35,013 bases of DNA, taken from assembly GCF_001748385.1 (NCBI RefSeq), contig NZ_BCLI01000009.1, positions 1 through 35,013 of the forward strand, in the 5' to 3' direction. Source of the stretch: Vulcanisaeta thermophila. GTDB taxonomy: Archaea > Thermoproteota > Thermoprotei > Thermoproteales > Thermocladiaceae. The notes beneath the pieces are model-generated. The model was not told the origin of the DNA, ran no database searches, and saw nothing but the letters and a program-made list of their open reading frames with translations. Below, in pieces: positions 20,764 to 35,013 of the stretch (position 1 is the stretch's first letter; every line of letters begins with the position of its first letter). The position numbers were made by a program, and so were the translations under genes.

Positions 20764-20787
20764 ACTCCAGCCGTGGTAAAACCTGTA

Positions 20788-21531
20788 ATGGGGCTTAAGG
20801 AGGACATACTGAGACTGCTTAGGGAGGATGAGGAGTTTAGGCTTGCGGTGGCTGGTTTGCTGGGTTTGGACTCAATACTGAATGAACTCAGGAAGTTGAG
20901 GGAGGATTTCAACAGGTTCGTTGAGACCGAAAACAGGAGGTGGGAGGCTTGGTACGAAACATGGAAGAGGTTCCTCGAGGACTACGAAAAAAGATGGAGA
21001 GAAAACGAGAAGAGATGGGAGGAGAACCAAAAGAGGTGGGAAGAAAATGAGAAAAGATGGAGAGAGGAAGAAGAAAGATGGAAGGCATGGTTTGAAACAT
21101 GGAAAAAATTCCTAGAAGACTACGAGATAAGATGGAAGGAAAATGAGGAGAGGTGGGAGGAGGCTAATAAGAGGTTTTCTAGGATTGAGCTTGAGCTTGG
21201 TGCCCTTTCTGAGAGTGTTTATTCTAGGTATGTCTGGGAGGATCTTAGGGAGGAGTTTGGCGCGAGGGGTGAGGCTGTTATTGAGAGGGTTAGGAATGCC
21301 CGTGTTGATAATGTGGACATTGACCTATTGGTGATCACCAACAGGGCTGCCTATGTGGTTGAGGTTAAGGTGAAGCCCAGGATAACCGATGTGGGCGCCC
21401 TGCTGGCCAAGGCTGACTTGGTGAGGAAGAAGTTCGGTAAGGATGTGGTTCCCATGCTCGTGGGTGTTTACGTCTCTGGTGATGTGGAGGAGTACGCGGT
21501 TAGTAAGGGTGTTAGGGTGCTTAAGTACTGA
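20788..21531 (+). CDS. Coiled-coil protein with PD-(D/E)XK nuclease-like domain (DUF3782-like), second copy
   Basis: A 247-residue protein with the same plan as the gene at 1908: a head with LLREDEEF, a charged coiled coil at residues 45-130, then a nuclease-like domain with D179 (VDIDLLV), E192 and K194 (VVEVKVKP). The coil is made of different units, RWxENEK and EAWYETWKRFLEDYE, rich in Trp, Arg and Glu. ATG 20788 aligns with the start of the paralogue and suits the TATA box; GTG 20773 would fall too close to it. Function is unknown. Its coil DNA is A-rich compared with its neighbours. Confidence 0.83.
   Translation: MGLKEDILRLLREDEEFRLAVAGLLGLDSILNELRKLREDFNRFVETENRRWEAWYETWKRFLEDYEKRWRENEKRWEENQKRWEENEKRWREEEERWKAWFETWKKFLEDYEIRWKENEERWEEANKRFSRIELELGALSESVYSRYVWEDLREEFGARGEAVIERVRNARVDNVDIDLLVITNRAAYVVEVKVKPRITDVGALLAKADLVRKKFGKDVVPMLVGVYVSGDVEEYAVSKGVRVLKY
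20938..21165 (+). repeat. Internal duplication in the coiled coil
   Basis: Residues 51-80 and 97-126 of the protein at 20788 are the same 30-residue unit (23 of 30 identical by eye), separated by short RW-EN-EK repeats. It arose by internal duplication. Confidence 0.8.
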
Positions 21532-21623
21532 TGCATGTACATTACTGGTGTTGGAATTACTGACGTTGGTGGTTACGTGGGTAGTGTATGGGTTTATGTG
21601 TTTGGTTGCTGGCTTGCCGTGAA

Positions 21624-22607
21624 CTAATATGGTTCGTCTCGTTTGAAGAATTCATCACTTATGAGGGGTTCCCACCACCAGCGGTTTTCCTTGTACCATT
21701 TAACGGTTTCTTTAATGCCAAGTTCAAAGGAGGTTTTGGCTCTCCAGCCTAGGGCTGATATTTTAGTTGTGTTGAGTAGGTAACGGGCGTCCTGAACTGG
21801 GCGGTCTTTAACGAACTTAATCTTTGGTTCAACGCCCAGTATTTTCGCTATAGTTTCCACAACCTCCACTACGTTTTTTTCCTCATTGCTTGCTATGTTA
21901 TAGATCTCGCCCTTTACACCCCTTTGGGCAAGCAGTAGTAACGCATCTACTAGATCTTCCACGTAAGTCCATGTGCGCCTTTGCCTTCCCGTGCCGTGGA
22001 TTGGTACGTGCATGCCCAGTAATAGCCTAATTATGGCCTTTGGTATAAGCTTCTCTGGATGTTGCCTAGGTCCATAGGCATTACTGGGCCTTGCGATAAC
22101 CACGTCTAAGCCATACGTGATGTAGTAACTATGGGCTATTAAATCACCACCAGCTTTACTTGCTGCATAGGGAGATGTGGGGTGAAGCGCGTCGGATTCT
22201 GAATAGGGCGTGTCTAGAGCTGGTCCGTAAACCTCGTCGGTGGATACATGAATAATGCGCGCACCATCGTCATACCTCCTTATGGCCTCAAGTAATGAAT
22301 GCGTTCCTAATACATTGGTTCTTGTGAATACAAGCGGGTCGTGAAATGACCTATCTACGTGAGATTCAGCTGCAAGATGGTAAATGATTGATGGCTTATA
22401 GATCCTGATTACCTTGGATAGCTGTTCAAAATCAACTAAATCTATAGGCATGAGCTTGGTACCCCCTGGAAGGTTCTCTATACGACCAGCATAGGTGAGT
22501 TTATCTACCACAATTACCTCTTGACCCAAATTAACTAGTCGGTGAACCAATGCCGAACCTATAAAGCCAGCACCGCCGGTGACTAGGATCAAATTTCCAT
22601 TACCCAA
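21624..22607 (-). CDS. rmlB: dTDP-glucose 4,6-dehydratase
   Basis: A 327-residue extended short-chain dehydrogenase. VTGGAGFIG at residues 9-17 binds NAD, HLAAESHVDRS near 77-87 is diagnostic of RmlB, STDEVYG at 122-128 supplies the Asp-Glu dehydration pair, and Y147/K151 (YAASK) are the catalytic dyad. It converts dTDP-glucose to dTDP-4-keto-6-deoxyglucose. It starts inside the end of rmlA: TTG 22607 has GGTGAGGG just before it; TTG 22592, overlapping the rmlA stop, is the alternative. It is translationally coupled to rmlA. RmlC and RmlD are not in this window, so the final deoxysugar is unknown. Confidence 0.95.
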   Translation of the reverse strand: MGNGNLILVTGGAGFIGSALVHRLVNLGQEVIVVDKLTYAGRIENLPGGTKLMPIDLVDFEQLSKVIRIYKPSIIYHLAAESHVDRSFHDPLVFTRTNVLGTHSLLEAIRRYDDGARIIHVSTDEVYGPALDTPYSESDALHPTSPYAASKAGGDLIAHSYYITYGLDVVIARPSNAYGPRQHPEKLIPKAIIRLLLGMHVPIHGTGRQRRTWTYVEDLVDALLLLAQRGVKGEIYNIASNEEKNVVEVVETIAKILGVEPKIKFVKDRPVQDARYLLNTTKISALGWRAKTSFELGIKETVKWYKENRWWWEPLISDEFFKRDEPY

Positions 22608-23650
22608 TTACCCTCACCAATGACCATCCTATGCCTACCGTTTTTAAGCACTACATATGACTTGGGCCCTATCACCGAGTCCGTGAGCCTCGCCTTGCCA
22701 AGGCTTAGTACTGCCCCCTCTAGCACGAGGCTCCTGGATACACTACCGCTCTCCAGCCTGGCGCCCTCCTCAAGGCTTACGAAGTGCTCCACCTCAGCAT
22801 CCCTACCCACGTGGGTGTTCCTGCCTATGTAAGCTGGCCCATGGACAGAGCCCTCAACAACGGCACCCCTCTCAATAATCACCCTACCACTAACCTCACC
22901 CCTCACCTCACCCTCAACCCTGGGCCTCACCTCATCAAGCATTAACTGGACTAGGTCCACGAGGTCCTCCGGCGTCCCCATGTCCTTCCACCAACCCGTG
23001 GTTACTGCGTAACCAACCCTGTAATTATTGTCTATGAACCATTGTATTAAGTCCGTAATCTCATACTCACCACGGGCCGAGGGCCTGAGGGTCCTGAAGG
23101 CCTTCTCCACCAGGTCTGGGTCCCTGAAGAAGTAGAGGCCCGTGAGTACGTAGGAGTTTGGTGGTGGTTGGCTTGGCTTCTCAACGAGCCTAACCACCCT
23201 GCCACCCTCAACCACGGCATTACCAAAGCGTTGGGGTTGTGGGTGCCTTGTGAGGACTATGTATGCGTCGAAGCCACCCTCCAGGAAGCCCTCAACAAAG
23301 CCCCTGAAGGACTCTGAGAAGTAGTTATCGCCCAGGGCCACCACAAAGGGCTCCCTGAGGAAGCCCTCCTCAATACCCCTATGAATTGCGTGGGCAATCC
23401 CAAGGCGCCTCTCCTGCCTTATGTAGGTTATGGAGACACCGAGACTTGAACCATCACCGAAGCGGTCCATGAACAACTCACCAAACCTACCAACTACAAA
23501 GCCCACCCTCTCAACACCAACCTCCCTAAGCTTACCCAAGGTGTAGGCAACCAGGGGCTTACCAAGGACGGAAATAAGGGGCTTGGGTATGGAGTAGGAG
23601 AGAGGCCTCATCCTCTCACCAAGACCAGCAACCAAAACAAGACCAAGCAT
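22589..23650 (-). CDS. rmlA: Glucose-1-phosphate thymidylyltransferase (long archaeal type)
   Basis: A 353-residue nucleotidyltransferase. LVLVAGLGERMRPLSYSIPKPL holds the GxGxRM-P...KP signature, VALGDNYF is the metal-binding region, and GEYEITDLIQWFID and TGWWKDMGTPEDL complete the sugar site. The last ~100 residues are left-handed beta-helix turns (VIIERGAVVEGSVHGPAYIG), as in the Sulfolobus-type bifunctional enzymes, so acetyltransferase activity is possible but not shown. ATG 23650 is set by the TATA box 25-26 bases away; upstream in-frame ATGs lie beyond the promoter. First gene of the rmlA-rmlB operon, feeding the neighbouring glycosyltransferases. Confidence 0.93.
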   Translation of the reverse strand: MLGLVLVAGLGERMRPLSYSIPKPLISVLGKPLVAYTLGKLREVGVERVGFVVGRFGELFMDRFGDGSSLGVSITYIRQERRLGIAHAIHRGIEEGFLREPFVVALGDNYFSESFRGFVEGFLEGGFDAYIVLTRHPQPQRFGNAVVEGGRVVRLVEKPSQPPPNSYVLTGLYFFRDPDLVEKAFRTLRPSARGEYEITDLIQWFIDNNYRVGYAVTTGWWKDMGTPEDLVDLVQLMLDEVRPRVEGEVRGEVSGRVIIERGAVVEGSVHGPAYIGRNTHVGRDAEVEHFVSLEEGARLESGSVSRSLVLEGAVLSLGKARLTDSVIGPKSYVVLKNGRHRMVIGEGNWVMEI

Positions 23651-23670
23651 TAACAACAAAAAACATAAGG

Positions 23671-23680
23671 ATTTATAAGC
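23671..23680 (-). promoter_or_regulatory. TATA box of rmlA-rmlB
   Basis: ATTTATAAGC is centred 25-26 bases from ATG 23650, indicating a leaderless rmlA message. Confidence 0.75.
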
Positions 23681-23910
23681 AACAACCCCATCCACCACAG
23701 GCCACGGTGAATAATAAACACGGAGACCTGTTCCAGCACTAACCATGGGCGAATTACGGGTCACCGAAGTAATGCCTACCTAGGCAGAAACCTAGCTGTA
23801 GTAGTGACCATGAAGGGTCGTGCCTTTACACCACAGTGACTATAATGACCACAGAAACCCACAGTCACGGATGTAATTACGAAAACCAACAATACACCCA
23901 TAGATCCCCC
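23681..23910. other. Non-coding gap with inverted repeats and a possible plus-strand promoter
   Basis: No gene seen. GGTCAC at 23759-23764 pairs with GTGACC at 23804-23809, enclosing a smaller hairpin TGCCTA/TAGGCA at 23773-23786. CCACAGTGAC and CCACAGTCAC are near-direct repeats around 23831-23868. TATAAT at 23841 would start a transcript near 23869 that runs into the tRNA fragment at 23911. Confidence 0.4.
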
Positions 23911-23938
23911 TCGGGTTCAAATCCCGGCCGGTCCACCA
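23911..23938 (+). pseudogene. Orphan 3' end of a tRNA-Ala gene (T-arm, acceptor strand, CCA)
   Basis: TCGGG-TTCAAAT-CCCGG forms a complete T-arm (positions 49-65), followed by CCGGTCC as the 3' acceptor strand, A73 and encoded CCA. U at position 70 with A73 fits the G3:U70 identity pair of tRNA-Ala. No matching 5' strand (GGGCCGG), D-arm or anticodon arm is found in the preceding 250 bases. It could be an attachment-site remnant from integration into a tRNA-Ala gene, the 3' piece of a split tRNA (known in Caldivirga), or a decayed tRNA gene. Confidence 0.75.
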
Positions 23939-23987
23939 AAACTCCCTTCTCACGAAACCGCCCTCACGTGGTTCATGGACCATCACA

Positions 23988-25109
23988 TTAGAAGGCTGCC
24001 CTTTGACCCTTTATGCCCGTTAATTCCCGCCTATTTGCTCTGAAGGGGTTTGGTAGTGTCTTTTCTCTGCCGTACTTTATCAACTCGGTTATTATCCTTG
24101 CAAAGGCGGGTGCCAGTTTGAATCCGTGGCCGCTCAGTCCCACGCAGATTATTAAATTCCTCATGGGCCTGTCTATAATTGGCATCCAGTCCCTGGTCAC
24201 GTCGTAAAGCCCCTGCCAACCGCCCAGGAATTGGGCGTTCTCCATGAATGGGAACCTCCTGGCCGCGGACTCCATAACCTTAAGCGCGTATTGAATGTCT
24301 GGCGGTGTTAATGTTGGGAATGTGTCTGGGTCCTCCCAAGTATCCTCTGGTGGGTACAGCATACCCATTAATGCTTGCTCACTTCCCTCGGGTCTCACGT
24401 AGTAGTTGTGTACGTAGTCGAAGACTATGGGCAGGGCCCTACTCACACGGGCCCTCACAACCCTCTCAATGACATTCTTAATACCCAGCCCAAGCCATGG
24501 GGCGTATTTATTACTCCAGACATTAACGGCCCAGACGTACTCCCCAGCCCTCACCACCCCACTTTCCCTGGTCCTAAGGCCCACCACTTCATTACCCTCA
24601 ATGATGGGTGACGCCTCATCAATTAATAACCTAACCCCTAACTCCTGGGCCCTCCTCATCACCGTGTTTACGTAAAGGCCCGTGTCCACGTAACCCGCAT
24701 CCTCCTCCCAAATACCCACCTCATCATCACTGACCACGGCTTCCCCTAGTAATTCCTTTATATCCCTGGGCTGCAGGAGCCTCACCCTAGCATTCAATCC
24801 CCTGAGCATCCCATAGGCGCCCTCCATGGCCTCGGCATCATTACTAATGACCACGAGCCCGGTCCTCGTGAAGACGCCCGTGCCGAAATACCTTTCAAAG
24901 TTTAGGAAGAACTCATGCGAGTAACGGGCCAGTTCAGCCACATCTTTATTGGTGTAGTAACTCCTCACTATACCTAGTGAGTATGCGGTCATTCCCTGCC
25001 CCACACCACGTTTATCAATCACAACAACCCTGAAACCCTCCCTGGCCAATTCATATGCCGTGGTAACCCCCGTGGAACCTGCGCCCACTATGGCCACGTC
25101 ATACTCCAT
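23988..25109 (-). CDS. FAD-dependent oxidoreductase (DAO / sarcosine oxidase beta-like)
   Basis: A 373-residue flavoprotein. VAIVGAGSTGVTTAYELA at the N-terminus is the FAD-binding GxGxxG helix, with VVVIDKRG as the ribose-binding strand end. The C-terminus has WQGLYDVTRDWMPIIDRP and ICVGLSGHGFKLAP, typical of the D-amino-acid / sarcosine / proline oxidase group. It oxidises an amine or amino acid; the substrate is unknown. ATG 25109 lies 26 bases from a TATA box and starts exactly at the Rossmann strand, so the 25 extra residues of the longer frame are not used. It is divergent from the molybdopterin oxidoreductase gene. Confidence 0.9.
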   Translation of the reverse strand: MEYDVAIVGAGSTGVTTAYELAREGFRVVVIDKRGVGQGMTAYSLGIVRSYYTNKDVAELARYSHEFFLNFERYFGTGVFTRTGLVVISNDAEAMEGAYGMLRGLNARVRLLQPRDIKELLGEAVVSDDEVGIWEEDAGYVDTGLYVNTVMRRAQELGVRLLIDEASPIIEGNEVVGLRTRESGVVRAGEYVWAVNVWSNKYAPWLGLGIKNVIERVVRARVSRALPIVFDYVHNYYVRPEGSEQALMGMLYPPEDTWEDPDTFPTLTPPDIQYALKVMESAARRFPFMENAQFLGGWQGLYDVTRDWMPIIDRPMRNLIICVGLSGHGFKLAPAFARIITELIKYGREKTLPNPFRANRRELTGIKGQRAAF

Positions 25110-25130
25110 AAATAAGCATGCACCCAATCC

Positions 25131-25182
25131 CCTTAAAAACGTATTGTCCCCGGACACTGGACACTGCAGAATGCTTTTTAAC
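25131..25182. promoter_or_regulatory. Divergent promoters of the FAD and molybdopterin oxidoreductases
   Basis: CCTTAAAAAC at 25131-25140 serves the minus-strand ATG 25109 (26 bases). GCTTTTTAAC at 25173-25182 serves the plus-strand GTG 25204 (26-27 bases). Three ACACTG words lie around 25154-25186. Confidence 0.7.
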
Positions 25183-25188
25183 ACTGGT

Positions 25189-25220
25189 ATTGCATGCCCT
25201 GATGTGGTTATTGCATGCCC
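25189..25220. repeat. 11-bp direct repeats flanking the start of the molybdopterin gene
   Basis: ATTGCATGCCC occurs at 25189-25199 and 25210-25220, a 21-bp period (two helical turns), between the TATA box and just inside the coding start. Each contains the palindrome GCATGC. It may be an operator; part of the second copy also encodes the first Cys of the Fe-S motif. Confidence 0.6.
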
Positions 25221-26994
25221 CAGGGATTGTTATGATACCTGCATATTCAATGAGAAGTACAAACCACTCAACGTATTCCCAATAAATGGATTCACATGTG
25301 CAAGGGGGAGGGCTGACCTAAGGAGGAATGAGGTGAATAGGGTTAGGGAGGCTTACGTGGATGGTAAGGAGGTGGATCTAGACACGGCCATTGAGCGTGT
25401 CGCCAAGTTGATAAGGGAGGAGTTGAGGAGGGGGCCCGAGAGGGTCCTCCACGTGGATTATGACGGGAACCAGGGCTTGTTGACGTGGTACTACCCAGCG
25501 AGGCTCTTCAACGCCGTGGGAGCCGCCTCCACCGATTACTCCATATGCTCCGCCGAGGGCCACGCGGCCATTAGGGCTCACTACGGAACCAGCGCCGGCG
25601 CCAGGCCGGAGGATCTGTTGAGGTATGACTCAGCCGTTCTCTGGGCATTCCCAGCGAGCACATCGGCAATCCACATATGGCATATCTTAGTGAGGAGGAG
25701 GATGTACAGGGTCTCCATTGACGTTAGGCTTAGTGATACGGCTAGGAGGTCTGAGAGGGCCATAATAGTTAGGCCGGGCACCGACGTGTTCCTCGCCATT
25801 GGGGTGATTAAGTTATTGATTGAGAATGGGTGGGTGGAGGGTAGGGTTAGGCACTTTGAGGACTTGGCATCCTTCGTGGGTAGGTATGACATTGGGCAAT
25901 TAAGTGAGGTAAGTGGCGTGCCCGTGGATGATATTAAATGGCTCACTGAGTTCTACCATGAGAGGAAACCCATAACCCTCATAGGATTTGCCCTGGGTAG
26001 GACCCTCAATGGTGGTGACGCCATCGGCCTCATCTCACTGATACCGGCATTACTTGGTTTGAAGCGGGGCTTCTACTACTCAAATACGTACGGTTGGGGA
26101 ATAGACTTTGATTACCTGAGGGGTCTGCACATGGGTAAGCCCTCGGTTGTGGTGCCCATGGCCAGGTTTGGGGATTACATCGAGGAGGGTAGGGTGGGCC
26201 TCGTCTATGTTTGGAACTCAAACCCACTATTAACACTGCCCCACGGGGGTGCGCTCAGGGATGCTGTGGAGGAGGGTAGGGTTAGGCTCATTGTTCACGA
26301 CCCATTCTGGTCAGACACGGCTAAGATAGCGGATGTGGTCATACCAGCCCCCACGTTCCTTGAGAAGTACGATGTGGTTTATAGTTACTGGCATGATTAC
26401 CTGGTGTACAATGAACCCGTGAGAAGGCCCCTGGGAATCCCCGAGTACGAGCTTATTAGGCGTATAGCCAAGGCCATGGGTCTCGACCACCCATTGCTCA
26501 CGGAGGATCCCTGGCACGCCGTTGATGTAGCCATAAGGGGTGCTGGAGTAACGTTGGAGGAGTTAGTGAGGAGGAAGTTCGTTAAGATAAGCCCCAGGTA
26601 CGTGAACGAGGACTCGGAACCAGACGCGCACCCACTACCCAACCCCACACCACCAAACAGGTTGGGTGTTGACGAGGCTTACCTGGTCTTCGCATCACAC
26701 CCACTCTACACCAATACCCAATTCCGTGAGGTCTATGGTGAGCTGAGGCCCGTGGTTTATACACATGATTATGAGGGATTGGTTAAGCTGGAGACCGAGT
26801 ACTCAAGCATCACTGTTAGGGCTGTGCGTGACCCAGGCATACCACCTGGGGTTATACTCATGTACAAGAACTCCCTGAGGGATTTAGGGGGTAGGTTCGT
26901 TAATGATTTAATGAGACCAGAAATGGGTAGGTACGGTGGAACACCGAGGATCAACGGTGTTAGGGTCAGGGTCCGTGTAATAAAGACAAGTTAA
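25204..26994 (+). CDS. Molybdopterin (Mo/W) oxidoreductase catalytic subunit
   Basis: A 596-residue member of the DMSO reductase/formate dehydrogenase superfamily. C5, C9, C13 and C32 (CPRDCYDTC...CARG) form the N-terminal 4Fe-4S site. C115 in YSICSAEG is the probable metal ligand. VVIPAPTFLEKYDVVYSY and a C-terminal cofactor-binding domain (FASHPLYTNTQFREVYG) follow. No Tat signal, so it is cytoplasmic. No Fe-S electron-transfer or membrane subunit lies next to it, which is odd for respiratory enzymes. GTG 25204 is 26-27 bases from the TATA box; the longer frame overlaps the divergent gene and its promoter. Electron donor and acceptor are unknown. Confidence 0.9.
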   Translation: MVIACPRDCYDTCIFNEKYKPLNVFPINGFTCARGRADLRRNEVNRVREAYVDGKEVDLDTAIERVAKLIREELRRGPERVLHVDYDGNQGLLTWYYPARLFNAVGAASTDYSICSAEGHAAIRAHYGTSAGARPEDLLRYDSAVLWAFPASTSAIHIWHILVRRRMYRVSIDVRLSDTARRSERAIIVRPGTDVFLAIGVIKLLIENGWVEGRVRHFEDLASFVGRYDIGQLSEVSGVPVDDIKWLTEFYHERKPITLIGFALGRTLNGGDAIGLISLIPALLGLKRGFYYSNTYGWGIDFDYLRGLHMGKPSVVVPMARFGDYIEEGRVGLVYVWNSNPLLTLPHGGALRDAVEEGRVRLIVHDPFWSDTAKIADVVIPAPTFLEKYDVVYSYWHDYLVYNEPVRRPLGIPEYELIRRIAKAMGLDHPLLTEDPWHAVDVAIRGAGVTLEELVRRKFVKISPRYVNEDSEPDAHPLPNPTPPNRLGVDEAYLVFASHPLYTNTQFREVYGELRPVVYTHDYEGLVKLETEYSSITVRAVRDPGIPPGVILMYKNSLRDLGGRFVNDLMRPEMGRYGGTPRINGVRVRVRVIKTS

Positions 26995-27088
26995 TGCATA
27001 ATTTATGGTTTGATAGACACTGCAATTATCATTACAATGCAAATAATGCCTATTCCCCTCCGTATCCTCATGATAAATTGCCGGTTAT

Positions 27089-27098
27089 GTTTTAAAGG
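27089..27098 (+). promoter_or_regulatory. TATA box of the gene at 27120
   Basis: GTTTTAAAGG is centred 26-27 bases before ATG 27120, indicating a leaderless message. Confidence 0.65.
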
Positions 27099-27119
27099 GG
27101 TTAATTATACGTCAGGGAA

Positions 27120-27521
27120 ATGTCCACCGAATTACTAAAGGCTGAGGTGGGTAGGATCAGGAGGGTCGTTAGATCCGTGGGTTTTAGAAAGGGTGCGTGC
27201 CTTGACAGTTTCGAGGTCTTTGATGCCATTCATAAAATTGAGGATAGATCAAGGCGTGGGTTGTGGGTTCTTGGCTGGAATGAGTATTCCGTGGGTGGTG
27301 GGTTGGTCATGTTTATTAGGTTGGTTAATGAGGATGGTTATCAATTCCTAGTGAGGGTTAGGTTCAACATTGGTACACTGAGCCTCGAGGTACCCCTGGA
27401 CAGCATGTACTCCCTGGGTGAGTTTAGGGGTATAACCGCCGTGAGGGTTGGTGACCACGTCCAAATAGTGGGTAGAATTTACTGTGTGGAGGATGTGCGC
27501 ATTAGGCGGTTAAGGTGGTGA
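27120..27521 (+). CDS. Protein of unknown function, 133 aa
   Basis: A soluble alpha/beta protein: an N-terminal basic helix ([21 protein letters not shown]), a region with [12 protein letters not shown], then alternating beta strands ([34 protein letters not shown]) that look like a small beta-barrel. Two Cys residues lie far apart. No family is recognised. ATG 27120 has a TATA box at the leaderless spacing, supporting a real gene. Its end overlaps the radical SAM gene on the opposite strand by 12 bases. Confidence 0.7.
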
Positions 27522-28658
27522 TGAGCCAGTCTTAACGTGAACCTTACTCCTCAACTCCTCAATTTGCTCCCTGGTTATCCTGGTATAGCGTGAGAAGAGT
27601 TGTATGGGTACGTAGGCAAACCTCTCACCCAGCTTCCACGTGGGTTGAACCTTACCCGCAATACTCACCTTGGCACCGCAGAACTTGCACCTGCCGTCCT
27701 CCGTGAGGTTCACCTCAAGTATTTCAAACCCCCTTCTCCTAATAACCACCCTACCGCAGTTGGGGCAGTACGTATTCTCCAGGGGGTGCCCCAAGACATT
27801 GCCTATGTACACGTACCTAAGGCCCTCCCTCTTGGCTAACTCTGCGTGTTTCTCCAGGGTCTCCACGGGCGTGGACGGGAGGTAATCAAGCTTGTAGTCT
27901 GGGTGGAATCTTAGGAAGTGTATTGGTGTGTCGGGCCCCAGGTTATCGTAAACCCACCTAACGAGTTTACGTGCATACTCAAGGTTATCGCCAATCTCTG
28001 GAACCACCAGATCCGTTATCTCTACGTAGATCCCCCTCCTCCTCATCTCAAGGATTGTTTCGAAAATGGGCTCAGGATCGGGGACTAACGCGTACTTCCT
28101 GAGGAACCTGGGGTCTGCATTCCCCTTAAAGTCCACCGTAGCTGCGTCGAGGAATTTAGAGAGGTAGTCCACGGCTTCGTCGGTCATGTAGCCGTTGGTT
28201 ACGAATGTGTTGAATAAACCGTGCTTCCTCGCCAGGGTACCCACGTCGTAGGCGAACTCGGCGAATATGCTTGGTTCGTTGTATGTGTACGTGATTCCCT
28301 GGGCCCCGTAGGCCTCTGCTAACTCCACGAGTTGCTCAGGGGTTACCTCGAAGCCCTCCAGGACCCTCCTTTGGCTTATGTCGAAGTTCTGGCAGTATTG
28401 GCATGCCCAGGAGCACCCGTAGGTGGAGAAGGAGAGCACCATGGATCCTGGGTTGAAGTGGTAAAGGGGTTTCTTCTCTATGGGGTCCACGGCAATGGCC
28501 GATATCCTACCGTAAACCATTAAGTATAGGGAGCCGCCTACGTTCCACCTGACACCGCAGAAGCCGTACTGACCATCGGACAACTTGCACCTCCTGGCGC
28601 AGGCTAAGCACTCAATCCTCCCATCCGGTAAATTTCGATAAAGGCTCGCCTGCTTCAC
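27510..28658 (-). CDS. AmmeMemoRadiSam-type radical SAM enzyme
   Basis: About 382 residues. An N-terminal four-Cys segment (C17, C20, C24, C34: CLACARRC...GFCGVR) precedes the radical SAM cluster C82-x3-C86-x2-C89 (GCSWACQYC). [14 protein letters not shown] and TVDFKGN are typical of the PFL-activase-like AmrS group, and a C-terminal zinc ribbon (YCPNCG...CKFCG) is also seen. It uses S-adenosylmethionine to form a radical; AmrS usually acts with AmrA/AmrB, which are not in this window. GTG 28658 is chosen because it begins the conserved region and sits about 27 bases from a TATA box. Longer starts such as ATG 28751 overlap the eS26 promoter. Likely pathway: modification or metabolism linked to Memo-like proteins; uncertain. 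Confidence 0.87.
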
Positions 28659-28680
28659 AACACAGAATGGCTTTGGCCTC

Positions 28681-28740
28681 GTTATAAAACTTAGCCCGTG
28701 TTTCAGTGCAGTGATGTATGAGGGGGTATGTTTTATAAAT
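28681..28740. promoter_or_regulatory. Promoters of the radical SAM gene (-) and eS26 gene (+)
   Basis: GTTATAAAAC at 28681-28690 is about 27 bases from the minus-strand GTG 28658. TTTTATAAAT at 28731-28740 is 26-27 bases before ATG 28762. Confidence 0.65.
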
Positions 28741-28761
28741 TGCTGAGTCATCGTTACCTGT

Positions 28762-29184
28762 ATGCCGAAGAAGAGGAAGAACCGTGGTCGCCACAAGGGT
28801 GATAAGGGTAAAGAACCAATGGTTTACTGTGACAACTGCGGTAAGCTGGTCCCCAGGTCAAAGGCTGTTAGGGTCACCGTGCCCTACTCACCAGTGCCCA
28901 CTGACCTTGCCAGGGAGTTGGAGAAGCAGGGTGCCATAGTGCCCAGGTACTACGTAACAAAGACCTACTGCATAAACTGCGCCATTTACCTGGGAATACT
29001 CAAGGTTAGGGCCGAGGATGAGAGGAAGAAGAGGGAGAGTATCGCCAGGGTACCCATACGTAGGGAGGTTAGTACCGTGGCCGCCGCAGCCACGAACCAA
29101 CCCAGGCCGGCCCAGCCCTCCACAGCGCCAGCTCCCAATCAACCACAGCAGGCGGGTCAGGAGCAGGGTGGGGTTAAACCTTAA
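28762..29184 (+). CDS. rps26e: Small ribosomal subunit protein eS26
   Basis: A 140-residue protein starting [19 protein letters not shown], the hallmark of archaeal S26e. The zinc-binding cysteines are CDNC near residue 21 and CINC near 71, and [10 protein letters not shown] ends the conserved domain at about residue 95. It belongs to the small subunit near the mRNA exit. It has an extra ~45-residue tail rich in Ala, Pro and Gln ([17 protein letters not shown]), longer than I expect for the family. ATG 28762 is 26-27 bases from a TATA box. It is unusual only in its tail; this gene is the best archaeal marker in the window. Confidence 0.95.
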
Positions 29185-29220
29185 CCTTTAAATTACCCCC
29201 CTTAAGACACTGTTTTGTTT

Positions 29221-29622
29221 ATGGCTAATAAAACGGACAGGAACATTGACACAGAGAGGATTGAGTACCTAAGCACTGAGACGTCTAGGAGGGTGCCCAC
29301 TAAGTTGGAGTTATTATTCGTGGATAACCCACAGAACTTCATGAAGGATTTCAGGGTGGTGTTTGATCTATCCGTCATTAAGGAGATAACCCTGGGCAGG
29401 AGCCCCGAGAATATGGTGGTTATCCCAGACCCCACGGTATCCAGGAAGCACGCCGTGATCACGGTGGTCAATGATGAGGGTTTGATAAAGGATCTCAACA
29501 GCACCAATGGAACCTACGTGCTGGAGAATGGGTCATTCCACAGGATTAATGAGTATAGGTTTAGGAGTGAGGTTGTGGTCAGGCTTGGTTACTACACGGT
29601 GATAAAGCTTTCATTGATGTAG
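29221..29622 (+). CDS. FHA-domain protein
   Basis: A 133-residue protein with an N-terminal 35-residue leader and one FHA domain: ITLGRSPEN, IPDPTVSRKHAVI and IKDLNSTNGTYV are the conserved phosphothreonine-binding loops, with the Arg, Ser-Arg-x-His and Asn-Gly residues all present. FHA domains bind phosphothreonine peptides. The leader has Thr-rich TERIEYLSTETSRR, a plausible kinase target. It is convergent with the membrane kinase at 29611, and their 3' ends overlap by 12 bases, so the two probably act in one signalling pair. ATG 29221 is preferred over TTG 29215. TATA-like CTTTAAATT lies about 31 bases upstream. Confidence 0.92.
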   Translation: MANKTDRNIDTERIEYLSTETSRRVPTKLELLFVDNPQNFMKDFRVVFDLSVIKEITLGRSPENMVVIPDPTVSRKHAVITVVNDEGLIKDLNSTNGTYVLENGSFHRINEYRFRSEVVVRLGYYTVIKLSLM

Positions 29623-31266
29623 TGAGTTCATTAGTGAGGATATAACGGTGAGGTACTCACTAACGGATTGGGGCCTCCTGTCCGGGTTCAACTCCAGCCC
29701 CTTCATCACCACATCGGCGAGCTGTGGCGGTACGTCAACCCTGAACCTGGTAATGGGCGGCACCAAAACCTGCCCTGTGGTTAGCCTATGCATGTGCGGG
29801 TTCACCCCCGTGAGCATTTCATAGAGGATGCATGATAGTGAGTAGATGTCCGACCTAACATCCGCAATGCCCCTACTAACCTCGGGTGCTGAGTAGGCTA
29901 TGGAGAATTGAGACACGTAGGACTTACCACCAATCATGATCTTGGCAGCGCCCAAATCACCGAGCTTAACAATGCTCCTCTCCTTATCCTTAAATAGTAT
30001 ATTCTCAGGCTTCAGGTCTAGGTGTAGTATATTCATACTGTGGAGCTCCGAGAGGGCCATGGCGATTGAATGGGCAACCCTAAGGAATTGGGGCAGGTCC
30101 AACGGCCCCTTCTCACGGAGTAGGTCCCTCAATGAGCCACCCTCCATGTACTCCATGACCAGGTAGGGAGGGTCCTCTAGGTAGCTCTCCAGGGATTTAT
30201 AGGGTATCTTATCATCGGAGGGTATGTGAACCTCAAAGACCCTAACAATCCTGGGGCTATCAATGAGCAGGTACTCACTCATCTCCTTCCTGAATGAGTT
30301 GAGGACCCTTTGATCATTAGCCAGCGGGTTCCCCCTGGAGTCCCTGTCCTTAAGGACCTTGATTGCGTAGACCCTACCACTCTCATCCCTACCCTTCAAA
30401 ACGTAGCTAAAGCCACCCACTGCAATGACCCCCTCGATTAAGTACTTACCACCTATCCACGCACCAATCCAGGAAAGCGGCGGTGCCAATCCCCTAATAT
30501 ACCTAAGCTTGGGCGATCTTAGGTATAGTATGATTAGTACCAGGGCCGTTATTGACGTTAACACCCAGTAAACGTTTGTTATGGAGTAGAACATCCTAAC
30601 TAGGATGAGTAGGGCTGTTATCATGGCAATGTAATTGGTGAATCTCCTGAGCATGACCATTGAGGAGAGGGCGGCGGGTAATTCGAGGAAGACCGCCGTG
30701 TAACTATTATGCATATAGTACAACTGCAGTGCCATGGGTACTACTAACACCATGCCCAGGTAAATCATTACCCAATCCATGACATCCTCAGGGAGATTAA
30801 CATTGTACATAAGCACCGAGTTCCTTAGGTTTATTATTATGGATGCCATGAAGATGAGGGCGGCATTAACAAGTAGGTAATAACTGGGTAGTAAAATCAA
30901 TGAGTAGCCCTGGTACAGGAGGTATGATAGGTAAACAGCCAATAATGCACTGGACACCCTAATGTCCAAGCCCCTGAGGCCGAGAATAACTATCGAGAGT
31001 CCCAGTACAACGGCTAGTGTGTACTGTATCTCGGCGAATGAGCTATAAAGCGCGAAACCCAGTGCCAGTACTATCTCGGTTATTAGGGGTATCGAGATCC
31101 AGGAAGACCTGAGTGGGTACCTACGGAACAGGTTGTACGAGAGCACGAAGAGCGCGATTAGTAGCATCATTGAGTTGAAATTGACACCAATGATGGGAAG
31201 GAGGCTAAGATAGAGTATGGTACCGGGCAGCGCCTTTATTACCTTATCCGCATTAATCGAAACCAC
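29611..31266 (-). CDS. Membrane-bound Ser/Thr protein kinase
   Basis: About 551 residues. The first ~255 form roughly 8-10 hydrophobic segments (for example IVLALGFALYSS, VMIYLGMVLVVPMAL, VLTSITALVLIILYL). The rest is a Hanks-type kinase: VGGFSYVLKG glycine loop, K303 (YAIKVL), EYMEGGSL hinge, D417 in HLDLKPEN (HRD replaced by HLD), D437 in GDLGAAK (DFG as DLG), and SAPE. All catalytic residues are present, so it should be active, with the kinase in the cytoplasm. The membrane part could sense a signal; no known sensor domain was seen. GTG 31266 is 27 bases from a TATA box, so it is preferred to TTG 31275. Its likely partner or substrate is the convergent FHA protein. Confidence 0.9.
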   Translation of the reverse strand: MVSINADKVIKALPGTILYLSLLPIIGVNFNSMMLLIALFVLSYNLFRRYPLRSSWISIPLITEIVLALGFALYSSFAEIQYTLAVVLGLSIVILGLRGLDIRVSSALLAVYLSYLLYQGYSLILLPSYYLLVNAALIFMASIIINLRNSVLMYNVNLPEDVMDWVMIYLGMVLVVPMALQLYYMHNSYTAVFLELPAALSSMVMLRRFTNYIAMITALLILVRMFYSITNVYWVLTSITALVLIILYLRSPKLRYIRGLAPPLSWIGAWIGGKYLIEGVIAVGGFSYVLKGRDESGRVYAIKVLKDRDSRGNPLANDQRVLNSFRKEMSEYLLIDSPRIVRVFEVHIPSDDKIPYKSLESYLEDPPYLVMEYMEGGSLRDLLREKGPLDLPQFLRVAHSIAMALSELHSMNILHLDLKPENILFKDKERSIVKLGDLGAAKIMIGGKSYVSQFSIAYSAPEVSRGIADVRSDIYSLSCILYEMLTGVNPHMHRLTTGQVLVPPITRFRVDVPPQLADVVMKGLELNPDRRPQSVSEYLTVISSLMNSLHQ

Positions 31267-31277
31267 GCAAAGCAAGT

Positions 31278-31297
31278 GTAATAAAGGGCATATAAAG
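31278..31297. promoter_or_regulatory. Overlapping divergent promoters (kinase and acylphosphatase)
   Basis: GTAATAAAGG at 31278-31287 is 26-27 bases before ATG 31309. CATATAAAG at 31289-31297 is 27 bases from the minus-strand GTG 31266. The boxes cross, so the two transcription starts should compete. Confidence 0.65.
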
Positions 31298-31308
31298 TTG
31301 AGCCATTA

Positions 31309-31590
31309 ATGGGGATCAGGAGGGTCCACGTGTTAGTAAGGGGTCTGGTCCAGGGCGTGGGTTTCAGGGCCTTTGTTGCCAGGAATGCCAGGAGGTTGGG
31401 CGTTAAGGGCTTCGTTAGGAACCTACCCGATGGGTTCACCGTCGAGGTTGTGGCCGAGGGTGAGGAGGACAGCGTGAACAAACTCCTGGAACTAATTAGG
31501 AGGGGGCCGCCGGGCGCCGTGGTGGAGGACGTGGAGGTGATTGATGAAACACCCACTGGTGAATTCCAGGACTTCCAAATAACGTATTAA
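31309..31590 (+). CDS. acyP: Acylphosphatase
   Basis: A 93-residue protein with the complete acylphosphatase signature: HVLVRGLVQGVGFRAFVARNA contains the phosphate-binding loop and the catalytic Arg (GFR), GFVRNLPDGFTVEVVAEG holds the catalytic Asn, and the C-terminus is QDFQITY. Length and layout are normal for the family (about 90-100). It hydrolyses acyl phosphates such as acetyl phosphate or 1,3-bisphosphoglycerate. It is transcribed alone, divergent from the kinase; its stop overlaps the Nudix stop by 4 bases. Confidence 0.95.
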   Translation: MGIRRVHVLVRGLVQGVGFRAFVARNARRLGVKGFVRNLPDGFTVEVVAEGEEDSVNKLLELIRRGPPGAVVEDVEVIDETPTGEFQDFQITY

Positions 31591-32051
31591 ACACACCTCA
31601 TTAAACCACCACGGCAGGGTTTGAAACCGTTCCTAACAAGGTCCATTAACAACTGCCTTGCCGTGTCCGTTAAATCCAGCCTCATGGCCTCATCAACACT
31701 GAATATGCCCAGATCCACCGCATCACTGGAGGCCCTGGGCTCACCACCCAGTGGCTCGATTAGGTAGTCCAGGAGGAGGAAGTGGTACTTAACGGCCCCA
31801 TTACTATCCCTCTCGATGTATTGGTAAATACCAAAGAGCCCAGTGACCCTGCCCCTAACCCCCGTCTCCTCGTACAACTCCCTTAGCACCGCCTCCTCAG
31901 GGTTCTCGCCAGCCTCGACCATGCCGCCGGGAATGGACCACTTACCCGCATTGGGTTCACTACCCCTCTTAATCAGTAGTATCCTGTTACCCTCGTAAAC
32001 AACCACAGCACCAACACCAACCAATGGGTACCTTGGGTACTCCCTAGACAC
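31587..32051 (-). CDS. Nudix hydrolase (ADP-ribose pyrophosphatase-like)
   Basis: A 154-residue protein. The Nudix box is GGMVEAGENPEEAVLRELYEETGV (read as two parts, GGMVEAGENPEEAV and LRELYEETGV), with all catalytic Glu residues present. Strand VVVYEGNRILLIKRG before it and a KYHFLLLDYLIEP strand after it are usual for the ADP-ribose/NADH pyrophosphatase type. The C-terminus is extended slightly past the fold (CRGGLMRCV). GTG 32051 lies 25-26 bases from a TATA box and begins the conserved domain; the longer ATG frame crosses the divergent gene's promoter. Exact nucleotide substrate unknown. Confidence 0.92.
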   Translation of the reverse strand: MSREYPRYPLVGVGAVVVYEGNRILLIKRGSEPNAGKWSIPGGMVEAGENPEEAVLRELYEETGVRGRVTGLFGIYQYIERDSNGAVKYHFLLLDYLIEPLGGEPRASSDAVDLGIFSVDEAMRLDLTDTARQLLMDLVRNGFKPCRGGLMRCV

Positions 32052-32071
32052 CGGTGTGGCTTTGCTCGTGA

Positions 32072-32105
32072 CTTTTAAATTTTGCCGAGGGCAAAGCTTT
32101 TTACC
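32072..32105. promoter_or_regulatory. Divergent promoters (Nudix gene and gene at 32125)
   Basis: CTTTTAAATT at 32072-32081 serves the minus-strand GTG 32051. GCTTTTTACC at 32096-32105 serves the plus-strand GTG 32125, about 25 bases away. Confidence 0.6.
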
Positions 32106-32124
32106 AAGCCCCAGTACCCACCGT

Positions 32125-32376
32125 GTGGAGTGCAATAATGAGTATGTGAGGAGGATTGTGAATGAATTAATGAACACAGAGCCCATAGAAGCCTACCAGA
32201 CCCTGATAGAGGAGGGGTGCTTTGGGAGGGCCATGATTTACGAGGTTGGTGGTAAGTACGTAATCTACATGAAGGACGAGGAGAATGCCTGCGTGGAGGA
32301 GACCCAATCCCTAGATAGGGCTAGGGAATTGGCTAGGGCATTCACCGACTCCGTGTGTAGCGGCCATGAGGATTAA
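32125..32376 (+). CDS. Protein of unknown function, 83 aa
   Basis: A small acidic alpha/beta protein: helix VRRIVNELMNTEPIEAYQTLI, strands MIYEVGGKYVIYMKDEE, and a C-terminal helix RARELARAFTDSV. Four Cys residues are present but not in a known metal motif. No family is recognised. GTG 32125 fits the promoter spacing; the frame is open further upstream but overlaps the divergent Nudix promoter. Its end overlaps the MoaD-like gene by 11 bases, so they are one operon and may work together. Confidence 0.65.
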   Translation: MECNNEYVRRIVNELMNTEPIEAYQTLIEEGCFGRAMIYEVGGKYVIYMKDEENACVEETQSLDRARELARAFTDSVCSGHED

Positions 32377-32647
32377 CGTAGTATTCTCGGGCGTTTTCCA
32401 CGAGGTGATGGGGACCATAGAGTTAGTGGTGGAGCTTAGGGATGGGTCTACGGTTAGGGACCTAGTGAATAAGTTGATTGAGATTAATGGTAGGGTTAAG
32501 GAGATGTTATTGAGTGATGATGGATCGTTAAGGCAGGAATGCCTAATAATAATTAATGGTAGGGATATACACTGGCTTAGGGGTCTCGATACCGAGCTCC
32601 ACAGTGACGACAAAGTACTCATAGCCCATAGGGTGTTCCTCGCATAA
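32366..32647 (+). CDS. MoaD/ThiS-like ubiquitin-fold protein without C-terminal Gly-Gly
   Basis: A 93-residue beta-grasp protein: INVVFSGVFHEVMG, the central GSTVRDLVNKLIEI, then IIINGRDIHWLRGLDTELHSDDKVLIAHRVFLA. The NGRDI...LDTELHSDDKV stretch is typical of MoaD/ThiS. The essential C-terminal Gly-Gly is missing (ends RVFLA), so it cannot carry a thiocarboxylate unless it is processed or works in another way. It overlaps the 83-aa gene by 11 bases. Role in molybdopterin or sulfur transfer is therefore uncertain; a regulatory or binding role is possible. The Mo enzyme at 25204 is 5 kb away. Confidence 0.8.
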   Translation: MRINVVFSGVFHEVMGTIELVVELRDGSTVRDLVNKLIEINGRVKEMLLSDDGSLRQECLIIINGRDIHWLRGLDTELHSDDKVLIAHRVFLA

Positions 32648-32679
32648 AACTTATTTACACAATGAATCACTACTTTATT

Positions 32680-33498
32680 ATGGCGAGGAGTAAGTTAATG
32701 AGTATTGATGAGGCCCTGGAATTAATAATTGATGGTGATGAAATAGCAATTGGGGGTATGTCATTCCATAGAAATCCCATGGCGCTCGCAATAGCCATAG
32801 CCAAGTCCAACAAGAGGGATTTGAAATTAATCGATAGGGAGCCTGGGCTTGCCTTTGACTTATTAACAATATCGGGTAGAGTCAAGAGCGTTAGGGCGGC
32901 CATGGTCTCCTTCGAGTACTACGGAACAGCACCAGGCTTTAGGAGGGCTGTGGAGAGCGGTGAGGTGGAGTTCATAGAGGATGCGTGCGAGGGCATAATG
33001 GCTGGGTTAAGGGCCGGCGCCTACGGAATACCCTTCATGCCATCGGCAATAGCCCTCGAGAGCGACCTAGTGAGGATAAACGTAAATAGGGGACTGTGGA
33101 AGATAGGCAAGAACCCATTTAACGAGAGTGAGGAATTGGTGTTTGTTAAGGCCATTAGGCCCGACGTGGCTTTGATACATGCACATAGGGCTGATGAGAG
33201 GGGTAATGTGGAGTTAATGGGGCCCAAGTACGAGGACATACTGAAGATACAAGCGTCAAGGAAGGTGATAATTAGTGTGGAGGAGGTGGTGCCCACGGAA
33301 TACTTCAGAAGGAACCCCGAGAAACTGACAATACCCGGGTTCCTGGTGACCGCCGTGGTTCACGCACCCAGGGGCGCATGGCCCACGTCAATGTATGGGC
33401 TATACCAGGCTGATTACGACGTCATTTCCAAGTACGTAAACCTGGTAAAAAGTGGTTACGGGATTAACGAGGTACTGAAGGTGTTCAGCAATGGCTAG
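32680..33498 (+). CDS. CoA-transferase subunit A (glutaconate CoA-transferase family)
   Basis: About 272 residues of the class I CoA-transferase alpha fold: DGDEIAIGGMSFHRNPMALA near the N-terminus, GLRAGAYGIPFMPS, PDVALIHAHRADERGNVELMG and a C-terminal segment with GAWPTSMYGLYQADY. The GctA/IpdA branch of the family fits best. It would move CoA between an acyl-CoA and an acid, or act as a hydrolase of a cyclic acyl-CoA if IpdAB-like. ATG 32680 is chosen from a TATA-like CTTATTTA about 27 bases upstream; ATG 32662 and 32698 are alternatives. It overlaps subunit B by 8 bases. Confidence 0.88.
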   Translation: MARSKLMSIDEALELIIDGDEIAIGGMSFHRNPMALAIAIAKSNKRDLKLIDREPGLAFDLLTISGRVKSVRAAMVSFEYYGTAPGFRRAVESGEVEFIEDACEGIMAGLRAGAYGIPFMPSAIALESDLVRINVNRGLWKIGKNPFNESEELVFVKAIRPDVALIHAHRADERGNVELMGPKYEDILKIQASRKVIISVEEVVPTEYFRRNPEKLTIPGFLVTAVVHAPRGAWPTSMYGLYQADYDVISKYVNLVKSGYGINEVLKVFSNG

Positions 33499-34222
33499 GG
33501 TTGACGACTTGATAAAATGCATGGCGAGTCAGTTAAGGGATGGGGATGTGGTTTACGTGGGCCTATCCTCAATACAGGCATTGCTAGCTGTCATGCTGGC
33601 GAGGGCGTGGGGCAGGGACGTGGAGTTTCTAAATGTTGCCGAGATATACAACCCCGAGGACGTGGTAATAACGCCATCATCGGGGGACCCATTCACATTT
33701 AAGGGTGGCGTGGGTATCGTAACCAGCCTAGACTCCTTCGACCTAGCCAGGAGGGGCTTACTGGACGTGATGTTCTTCTCAGCCGCCCAGGTGGATCGTA
33801 GGGGCAACATGAACCTATCAGTGATAGGACCCTATGAGAAGCCCAGGGTCAGACTCCCTGGGGGTGCCGCGGCGGCTTACCTGTACAGGAGGGCCCGTAG
33901 GGTGATAATGTGGTTGATGGAACACAGCAGGAGGAACCTAGTGGAGAGGGTGGACTTCATAACGGCGCCGGGGCCCACCAGAAACGGCCCCGAACTGGTG
34001 GTGTGCACACCCATGGCATTGTTCAGGTTTGACCCTGAGGTAAATGAATTAGTGCTTGAGGGTGTTTACGAGGATTTATCACTGGGTGATGTCATTGATA
34101 ATATGGGCTTTAAACCCAGGGTTAGGGAGCCGTTGACGAGGCTTAGAAAGGCCACTGAGGAAGAAATCAACATACTGAATAGGTGGGATCCCAACGGGCT
34201 TCGTTACGGTAGGAGACCCTGA
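33491..34222 (+). CDS. CoA-transferase subunit B (glutaconate CoA-transferase family)
   Basis: A 243-residue beta subunit: DGDVVYVGLSSIQALLAVMLA, LNVAEIYNPEDV, FFSAAQVDRRGNMNLSVIG and RLPGGAAAAYLYRRARRVIMW are family features. The catalytic Glu motif of GctB/SCOT (SENG type) is not obvious; the nearest candidate is the Glu in VAEIYNP. If that is not equivalent, the pair may be IpdAB-like, which lacks it. It is translationally coupled to subunit A by an 8-base overlap. The acyl-CoA cluster at the left edge of the window is far away, so a shared pathway is only a guess. Confidence 0.87.
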   Translation: MARVDDLIKCMASQLRDGDVVYVGLSSIQALLAVMLARAWGRDVEFLNVAEIYNPEDVVITPSSGDPFTFKGGVGIVTSLDSFDLARRGLLDVMFFSAAQVDRRGNMNLSVIGPYEKPRVRLPGGAAAAYLYRRARRVIMWLMEHSRRNLVERVDFITAPGPTRNGPELVVCTPMALFRFDPEVNELVLEGVYEDLSLGDVIDNMGFKPRVREPLTRLRKATEEEINILNRWDPNGLRYGRRP

Positions 34223-34231
34223 GAAAGCTCT

Positions 34232-34307
34232 TGGTGGACCAGCCGGAATTCAAACCCGGAACCTCCCGCTTACGAGGCGATTACTCTACCGAGGTTTACA
34301 TGGTTCC
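34232..34307 (-). tRNA. Degenerate tRNA-Thr(CGU)-like gene
   Basis: Read on the minus strand, 76 bases fit tRNA numbering exactly: U8, G18-G19 and A21 in the D region, anticodon loop CTCGTAA (anticodon CGU, Thr) at 32-38, T-arm at 49-65, A73 and encoded CCA. But the 5' side does not fit: acceptor bases 4, 6 and 7 fail to pair with CTGGTCC, D-stem 10-13 (TAAA) does not pair with 22-25 (GAGT), 27:43 is A:G, and the invariant C56 is T. A TATA box lies 27 bases from the first G. A decayed tRNA gene, the 3' part of a split tRNA, or an unusual tRNA are the options. Confidence 0.55.
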
Positions 34308-34689: not shown

Positions 34690-34873
34690 TAATAATCACA
34701 CAATGAGTCCCCGAGATTCAGCCACCCCCGTTTAGCTGGGAAGGCAAGACTCGGGGATGATTAAACCAAGCCCACGTGGGATTGTGGAAAGCGTGGGTTA
34801 TGTTTAGCGGCAAAAAGTGGCCCTGGGTTCCCTGCCTCAAACCCCCTCTCCCTCCCCATCCCTGTTTTTTGTT
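34690..34873 (+). ncRNA. Predicted structured non-coding RNA, unidentified
   Basis: The transcript starting near 34690 has no long frame. TCCCCGAG at 34708-34715 pairs perfectly with CTCGGGGA at 34750-34757, and CAGC/GCTG (34719-34722 and 34735-34738) form an inner stem with purine-rich GGGAAGGCAAGA between the strands, which could form sheared G-A pairs. A run of six T at 34865-34870 could end transcription; otherwise the RNA continues to the window end. It is not SRP RNA (no GGAA tetraloop arm seen), and no RNase P or C/D-box signature was found. It may be the leader of an rRNA operon. Confidence 0.4.
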
Positions 34874-35013
34874 CAAGTCCCTCGTGGGGGCTGCCCATGA
34901 AGGGATAGGGCCCCTCGCGAGGGGGGCCTGGGCCTGGGCTGGGACCCAGCAATGAGGGATGAGGGAGCTGGGCAACCCAACCCAGGCTGGCCCAAGGACC
35001 CGTACAATGAGGG
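34874..35013. other. GC-rich, hairpin-rich non-coding end of the window
   Basis: CCCCTCGCGAGGGG at 34911-34924 is a perfect 14-bp palindrome, followed by CTGGG/CCCAG pairs near 34934-34949. The stretch is clearly richer in G+C than the protein genes, as stable RNAs and their leaders are in hyperthermophiles. No coding frame is convincing. A 16S rRNA start is not within the window. Confidence 0.4.

What the first reader, a model, noticed from the sequence alone, without database searches (positions are those of the whole stretch)
23911..23938. Orphan tRNA-Ala 3' end with CCA and no 5' half
A perfect T-arm plus acceptor strand, with U70 and A73 of tRNA-Ala, stands alone in a 337-bp gap. Caldivirga is known for split and tri-split tRNAs, and archaeal integrases leave tRNA 3' ends as att remnants. 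Either explanation is informative: a split-tRNA piece or the right edge of an integrated island. A TATA-like box at 23841 could drive it.
Basis: partly seen in the sequence, partly recalled or inferred. Interest (0 to 1): 0.65.

Follow-up and report, generated by a model that had tools for sequence, protein, structure and literature searches.

The report
Broken tRNA-Ala end at rearrangement breakpoint
The lone piece of a transfer-RNA gene is real, but it is most likely the leftover tail of an ordinary alanine tRNA gene that was cut when a piece of this heat-loving archaeon's chromosome flipped over, not a working split-tRNA part.

Summary
In detail: window 23911-23938 is the T-arm, 3' acceptor strand and CCA of tRNA-Ala (U70, A73). 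A 31-nt stretch (23912-23942) is identical to two intact tRNA-Ala genes of the same genome. It is the only clean orphan among 52 genome-wide T-arm/CCA matches.
The split-tRNA reading fails. The genome has intact Ala-GGC, -CGC and -UGC genes within a complete set of 46 tRNAs, and every Ala-type 5' half belongs to an intact gene. The genus is Vulcanisaeta, not Caldivirga.
The fragment faces an FAD oxidoreductase gene across 49 bp. In 8 of 11 same-genus genomes an intact tRNA-Ala 3' end faces that gene (80 bp to 4.6 kb away), so the fragment is what remains of a tRNA-Ala locus. Upstream lies part of a surface-glycan cluster. The rest of that cluster lies beside intact tRNA-Ala(UGC) on another contig, where a neighbouring 22-kb block is inverted relative to a complete relative. 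An inversion with one breakpoint inside the tRNA explains both junctions.
An integrase att remnant is second choice: no integrase was found, and the copies appear inverted, not direct.
This is a new example of a known kind. A TnpB-like element family parked 3' of tRNA genes is more unusual.

The parts
23911..23938 (+). Orphan tRNA-Ala 3' end: T-arm, 3' acceptor strand, A73, CCA
   Evidence: identical over 23912-23938 to three intact genes
23902..23911 (+). AGATCC (as in tRNA positions 44-49 of the intact genes) followed by four extra bases CCCT; possibly a decayed end of the same tRNA copy, or chance
   Evidence: read; not tested statistically
23939..23942 (+). AAAC after the CCA, shared with both C7 tRNA-Ala genes, so that the identical stretch is 23912-23942 (31 nt)
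23965..23971 (+). CACGTGG at +26 after the CCA, as beside tRNA-Ala(UGC) at C7:41716; vestige of the tRNA-flanking element terminus or of this genome's tRNA flank style
23988..25184 (-). FAD oxidoreductase (DAO, PF01266); faces an intact tRNA-Ala 3' end in 8 of 11 same-genus genomes
25060..34222 (.). Block with conserved gene order (molybdopterin oxidoreductase, radical SAM, S26e, kinase, NUDIX, CoA transferase), collinear with G004:222369-231425
20773..23764 (.). Part of a surface-glycan cluster (epimerase/dehydratase, nucleotidyltransferase); the rest is at C7:26842-40030; one cluster in G004, G008, G011
34690..35013 (.). One end of the multi-copy TnpB-like element at the contig end; the other end of such an element starts C7

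Best explanation
The fragment is a non-functional scar: the stranded 3' end of a tRNA-Ala gene that once stood intact beside the FAD oxidoreductase gene. A chromosomal inversion with one breakpoint inside the T-arm/acceptor part of the tRNA gene separated this 3' end from its 5' half; the intact gene now sits at the other junction with an equivalent 3' end. Shown: identity to intact genes, the ancestral neighbour on the right, other DNA on the left, an altered neighbour and an inverted block beside intact tRNA-Ala(UGC) on contig C7. Inferred: that contigs C9 and C7 join through the element at their ends, that UGC rather than the tRNA at C7:564 was the broken partner, and that recombination over the shared 31-nt repeat, or staggered-break repair, made the flip.
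For: Fragment identical to intact tRNA-Ala genes. FAD gene faces an intact tRNA-Ala 3' end in 8 of 11 same-genus genomes. In complete G004 the order is glycan cluster ... C7:24621-2316 homologues, tRNA-Ala(GGC), C9:34222-23988 homologues, tRNA-Ala(UGC), C7:41870-79252 homologues; on C7 of this genome 2316-24621 lies inverted relative to UGC with cluster genes between. The cluster that is one unit in G004, G008 and G011 is divided between the two junctions. C9 right end and C7 left end are opposite ends of one element, at the place where gene order predicts a join. Complete tRNA set, so no function is required. The fragment's 3' flank is most like the UGC flank among 46.
Against: The C9-C7 join is not proven; other contig ends carry the same element. 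G010 shows a different order, from which a smaller (~11 kb) inversion with the tRNA at C7:564 as partner would also do. The 118 kb between cluster and 199 kb in G004 is missing on C7, the nucleotidyltransferase lies elsewhere within the cluster in relatives, and C9:3374-20704 has mostly no G004 counterpart in the 420 kb compared, so more than one event occurred. 21 of 46 tRNA flanks of this genome resemble the fragment's flank, which weakens the flank argument. Orphan bases show no decay, although nothing is known to preserve them.
Confidence: 0.62

Rival explanations
1. Integrase att remnant: an element integrated into the 3' end of a tRNA-Ala, restored the gene with its own copy, and left the displaced 3' end beside FAD; the element has since been lost or rearranged.
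For: Archaeal integrases prefer tRNA 3' ends and leave the old 3' end at the far edge (PMC8371274, passages), which fits the fragment lying beside the old neighbour. Some genus members have weak PF16795 matches. Most of C9:1-20704 lacks G004 counterparts in the 420 kb compared.
Against: No PF00589 match in this genome, with 14 of 14 controls positive; no PF16795 match here; none of 30 window proteins scanned is a recombinase. att sites are direct repeats: no intact tRNA-Ala lies in the 23.9 kb to the left, and the UGC copy is inverted if C9 and C7 join. DNA beside UGC runs into a native block.
Confidence: 0.2
2. Assembly mis-join at the 31-nt repeat: the orphan is real but lies inside the glycan cluster, and tRNA-Ala(UGC) still faces FAD as in relatives.
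For: Exchanging right flanks at the repeat would restore both the ancestral UGC-FAD order and one undivided cluster.
Against: A 31-nt repeat is shorter than ordinary reads, and the assembly is otherwise good (10 contigs, 99.8% complete). Reads were not available.
Confidence: 0.08
3. Copying or capture of a tRNA 3' end by the TnpB-like element or another mobile element that works beside tRNA genes.
For: The element family sits 3' of several tRNA genes here, and the fragment has CACGTGG at +26 like those tRNAs.
Against: No element DNA beyond the short motif lies at the fragment; it would not explain the ancestral FAD neighbour.
Confidence: 0.06
4. Working 3' half of a split tRNA, trans-spliced to a 5' half elsewhere.
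For: All tRNA features of the 3' part are intact; split tRNAs exist in Caldivirga maquilingensis (PMC4033280, passages).
Against: Three intact tRNA-Ala genes and a complete set; Ala-type 5' halves occur only in intact genes; no tRNA-like box upstream.
Confidence: 0.02

Closest known systems
Synteny break and inversion inside tRNA-Asp(GUC) of Thermosphaera aggregans, and partial tRNA fragments in Aeropyrum pernix and T. aggregans (PMC3218864, passages)
   Same: A tRNA gene of a hyperthermophilic crenarchaeon cut at a synteny break with an inversion; partial tRNA fragments put down to integration or rearrangement
   Different: There both halves remain and are read as a trans-spliced tRNA; here the 5' half exists only in intact genes and the fragment is redundant
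Chromosomal inversions between opposed tRNA genes in Thermococcus, by the pTN3 integrase (PMC5495485, abstract and passages)
   Same: Inversion borders in tRNA genes in opposite orientation
   Different: There two whole tRNA genes recombine over 104 bp or more with a known integrase; here one copy is only a 3' end, the repeat is 31 nt, and no integrase was found
tRNA gene fragments left by integrated elements in Thermococcaceae (PMC9897764, passages; PMC8371274, passages)
   Same: Short non-functional tRNA remnant beside a complete tRNA set; 3' end beside the old neighbour
   Different: There about 9-23 kb of viral DNA separates fragment and intact gene in direct order; this was not seen here

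Membership tests
Split (trans-spliced) tRNA | A separate gene for the matching 5' half | tested here: not met
   Ala-type 5' half occurs 3 times exactly, all in intact genes; 8 looser matches start other tRNA genes
Split (trans-spliced) tRNA | The isoacceptor is not encoded by an intact gene | tested here: not met
   Ala GGC, CGC, UGC intact; 46 isoacceptors present
Split (trans-spliced) tRNA | Transcription and splicing of the pieces | not testable with these tools
   no RNA data; no tRNA-like box upstream
Integrase att remnant (attR in a tRNA 3' end) | Integrase gene in or near the element | tested here: not met
   none by PF00589 or PF16795 in the genome, none among 30 window proteins
Integrase att remnant (attR in a tRNA 3' end) | Intact tRNA in direct orientation at the other edge | tested here: inconclusive
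   none in the 23.9 kb on the left; the DNA beyond the contig is unknown; UGC copy inverted if C9 and C7 join
Inversion scar at a tRNA gene | Gene order broken exactly at the tRNA, old neighbour kept on one side | tested here: met
   FAD neighbour kept in 8 of 11 genomes; other DNA on the left
Inversion scar at a tRNA gene | Repeat copies in inverted orientation on one replicon | tested here: inconclusive
   holds if C9 joins C7 as gene order predicts; the join is inferred

The most novel reading that the evidence does not exclude
tRNA-Ala 3' ends act as short inverted repeats (31 nt) that flip a segment of at least 53 kb and divide a surface-glycan cluster, perhaps reversibly, with a lineage-specific TnpB-like element family that parks 3' of tRNA genes as the agent that makes these sites recombine.
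Probability: 0.08. Interest if true: 0.65.

Novelty: new member of a known kind. Interest (0 to 1): 0.3.

Why it matters
It shows in Vulcanisaeta that a tRNA gene can be the breakpoint of gene order and that a clean tRNA 3' end with CCA need not be a split-tRNA piece or a virus scar. It warns against calling split tRNAs from one orphan end without checking the whole tRNA set and the neighbours in relatives.

Tried and rejected
Split tRNA: rejected on the complete tRNA set and the absence of a lone 5' half. A 5' half within intron distance: rejected. Simple insertion of an island at tRNA-Ala(UGC): disfavoured, because the DNA beside UGC continues into a native block in inverted order. Similarity of the fragment's 3' flank to relatives' tRNA flanks: weak (best G006, 13 of 1000 shuffles reach it; worst G010, 551 of 1000; 8 flanks tried), so not used as evidence. 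A phage source for 23640-24020: no match. A first named-genome scan with the FAD protein found nothing; the second, with the radical SAM protein, gave the genus. Isoacceptors of genes with introns were assigned by eye; ARAGORN misnames or misses several of them. The pseudo-tRNA at 34232-34279 gave no Rfam match. Literature: searches; PMC5495485 abstract, outline and passages; PMC3218864, PMC4033280, PMC8371274, PMC9897764 passages only. The tRNA position numbers, the att logic in outline and the TnpB motif names beyond the Pfam hit are from general knowledge.

Full report
What is there. The window is the whole of contig C9 (35,013 bases) of a 2.02-Mb, 10-contig genome that is 99.8% complete. 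Named matches to a window protein place it with Vulcanisaeta: 78-85% identity in the best segment for eight Vulcanisaeta records, 68% and 74% for two Caldivirga records. At 23911-23938 lies a T-arm, the 3' acceptor strand, A73 and CCA of tRNA-Ala. The 27 bases 23912-23938 are identical to three intact tRNA-Ala genes at C4:23975 (GGC), C7:564 (CGC) and C7:41716 (UGC). With the two C7 genes the identity runs on through AAAC to 23942.

Is it an orphan. A genome-wide T-arm plus CCA pattern gives 52 matches; compared by hand, 44 belong to known tRNA genes, 7 are loose chance matches and one is this fragment. In the genus the 22-nt 3' end occurs 30 times, in 10 of 12 genomes. 26 of the 30 have the exact 5' half within 140 bases upstream. 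Of the other four, two are cut by a contig end (L142, L150), one still shows its D-arm and anticodon arm with extra introns (L145), and the last is this fragment.

Is it needed. Rfam finds 46 tRNA genes. Reading them gives 46 isoacceptors, Ala GGC, CGC and UGC included (genes with introns by eye). The Ala-type 5' half occurs exactly three times, always in the intact genes; eight further matches with 1-3 mismatches start other tRNA genes. A split tRNA-Ala is neither needed nor has a partner.

What the neighbours say. The FAD oxidoreductase gene (23988-25184, minus) has a match in all 11 other genomes of the genus. In 8 of these 11 an intact tRNA-Ala 3' end faces it: G010 at about 80 bp, G004 at 2.1 kb, G009 and G003 at 2.5-2.6 kb, G006, G008, G002 and G005 at 4.1-4.6 kb (in G006 the tRNA runs off the contig). 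G011 has none within the 9 kb inspected, and in G001 and G007 the contig ends close to the gene. The gene is UGC in all but G010, where it is GGC (G006 not readable). So the right-hand side of the fragment is the old downstream side of a tRNA-Ala gene.

The other side. In complete G004 the order is: glycan cluster (65-81 kb); at 199-221 kb the homologues of C7:24621-2316; tRNA-Ala(GGC); homologues of C9:34222-23988 with the FAD gene last; tRNA-Ala(UGC); homologues of C7:41870-79252. In this genome C7 reads 2316 to 24621, cluster genes 26842-40030, tRNA-Ala(UGC), then 41870 onward. C9 reads cluster genes 20773-23764, the fragment, FAD and on to 34222. The cluster, one unit in G004, G008 and G011, is thus divided between the two junctions, and the block 2316-24621 is inverted relative to UGC. 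One inversion, with breakpoints in the tRNA and in the cluster, gives both junctions. Other changes have occurred too: the nucleotidyltransferase lies inside the cluster in relatives, G004 has about 118 kb between the cluster and 199 kb that C7 lacks, and most genes at C9:3374-20704 have no counterpart in the 420 kb of G004 compared.

How it may have happened. C9 right end and C7 left end are opposite ends of one multi-copy element, which fits the join that gene order predicts; several other contig ends carry this element, so the join is an inference. After the join, fragment and UGC are inverted copies about 53 kb apart plus the gap. Either an older orphan end in the cluster recombined with UGC over the 31-nt repeat, or a staggered break was filled in and so copied the 3' end. 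The fragment's 36-nt 3' flank is most like the UGC flank among 46 (score 12; 0 of 2000 shuffles reach it), but 21 of 46 flanks of this genome beat their own shuffles, so tRNA flanks here share a style. A smaller inversion (about 11 kb) from a G010-like order, with the tRNA at C7:564 as partner, is not excluded. On a small tree the genome falls outside the other genus members, next to outgroup rows with few genes, so the ancestral order is not certain.

Why not an integrase. PF00589 gives no match in this genome and rings in 14 of 14 control genomes. PF16795 gives none here, while 7 of 12 genus genomes have at least a weak match. No recombinase appears among 30 window proteins scanned with Pfam. 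An element that has left or decayed cannot be excluded.

Place among known things. PMC3218864 (passages) reports a tRNA-Asp split and inverted at a synteny break, partial tRNA fragments in two species, and synteny breaks beside 20 of 45 tRNA pairs. PMC5495485 (abstract and passages) shows inversions between opposed tRNA genes in Thermococcus. The fragments in PMC9897764 (passages) come mostly from integration. This finding is a further case of that kind; it differs in the short repeat, in the lack of a found integrase and in the absence of a lone 5' half.

A side finding. Seven matches to a TnpB-like protein (Cas12f1-like TNB domain) occur in this genome and none in the 11 other genus members. 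Six of the seven lie 3' of a tRNA gene (Asn, Phe, Gln, Cys, Leu-CAA, Ala-CGC), with the 3' end of the protein gene towards the tRNA; the seventh is about 400 bp on the 5' side of tRNA-Ser. Several copies are broken by stops.

Noticed in passing
window 34690-35013; C7:3-329; C7:79440-80522; C1:314820-315743; C1:645051-646112; C5:68970-69890; C4:634427-634756; C6:95423-96406: A TnpB-like element family (Cas12f1-like TNB domain) found in this genome only within the genus (7 matches against 0 in 11 others); [quoted passage not shown] One terminus, CCCCACGTGGGG..., often begins 20-29 nt after the tRNA CCA. A paper search for TnpB, tRNA and Thermoproteales found none.
   Followed up: partly
3' flanks of the 46 tRNA genes of the genome: CACGTG lies within 70 nt after 10 of 46 tRNA genes, where about 1-2 would be expected from its density in the window and C7 (0.49 and 0.31 per kb); many flanks also start AAAC and hold a TTCATGAA palindrome.
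   Followed up: partly
window 34232-34279 (minus): A second, degenerate tRNA piece: 4 mismatches in 27 to the tRNA-Ala 3' end but an anticodon arm like tRNA-Thr(CGU); no Rfam match. It lies close to where tRNA-Ala(GGC) stands in relatives, in the opposite orientation.
   Followed up: partly
C4:23975-24068 and C7:564-657: The Ala-GGC and Ala-CGC genes seem to have changed places: the C4 site, GGC here, carries CGC in G004, G008 and G009; the C7 site, CGC here, carries GGC in relatives and is turned round.
   Followed up: partly
L129 and L138 (G011): The CGC and UGC tRNA-Ala genes of G011 share nearly identical 3' flanks over about 60 nt although far apart, which suggests exchange between tRNA-Ala genes in that species.
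   Followed up: no
window 12032-19456 (minus): A 2474-aa protein with an N-terminal hydrophobic stretch and no Pfam match above its cut-off, beside glycosyltransferase and PaREP1 genes.
   Followed up: no
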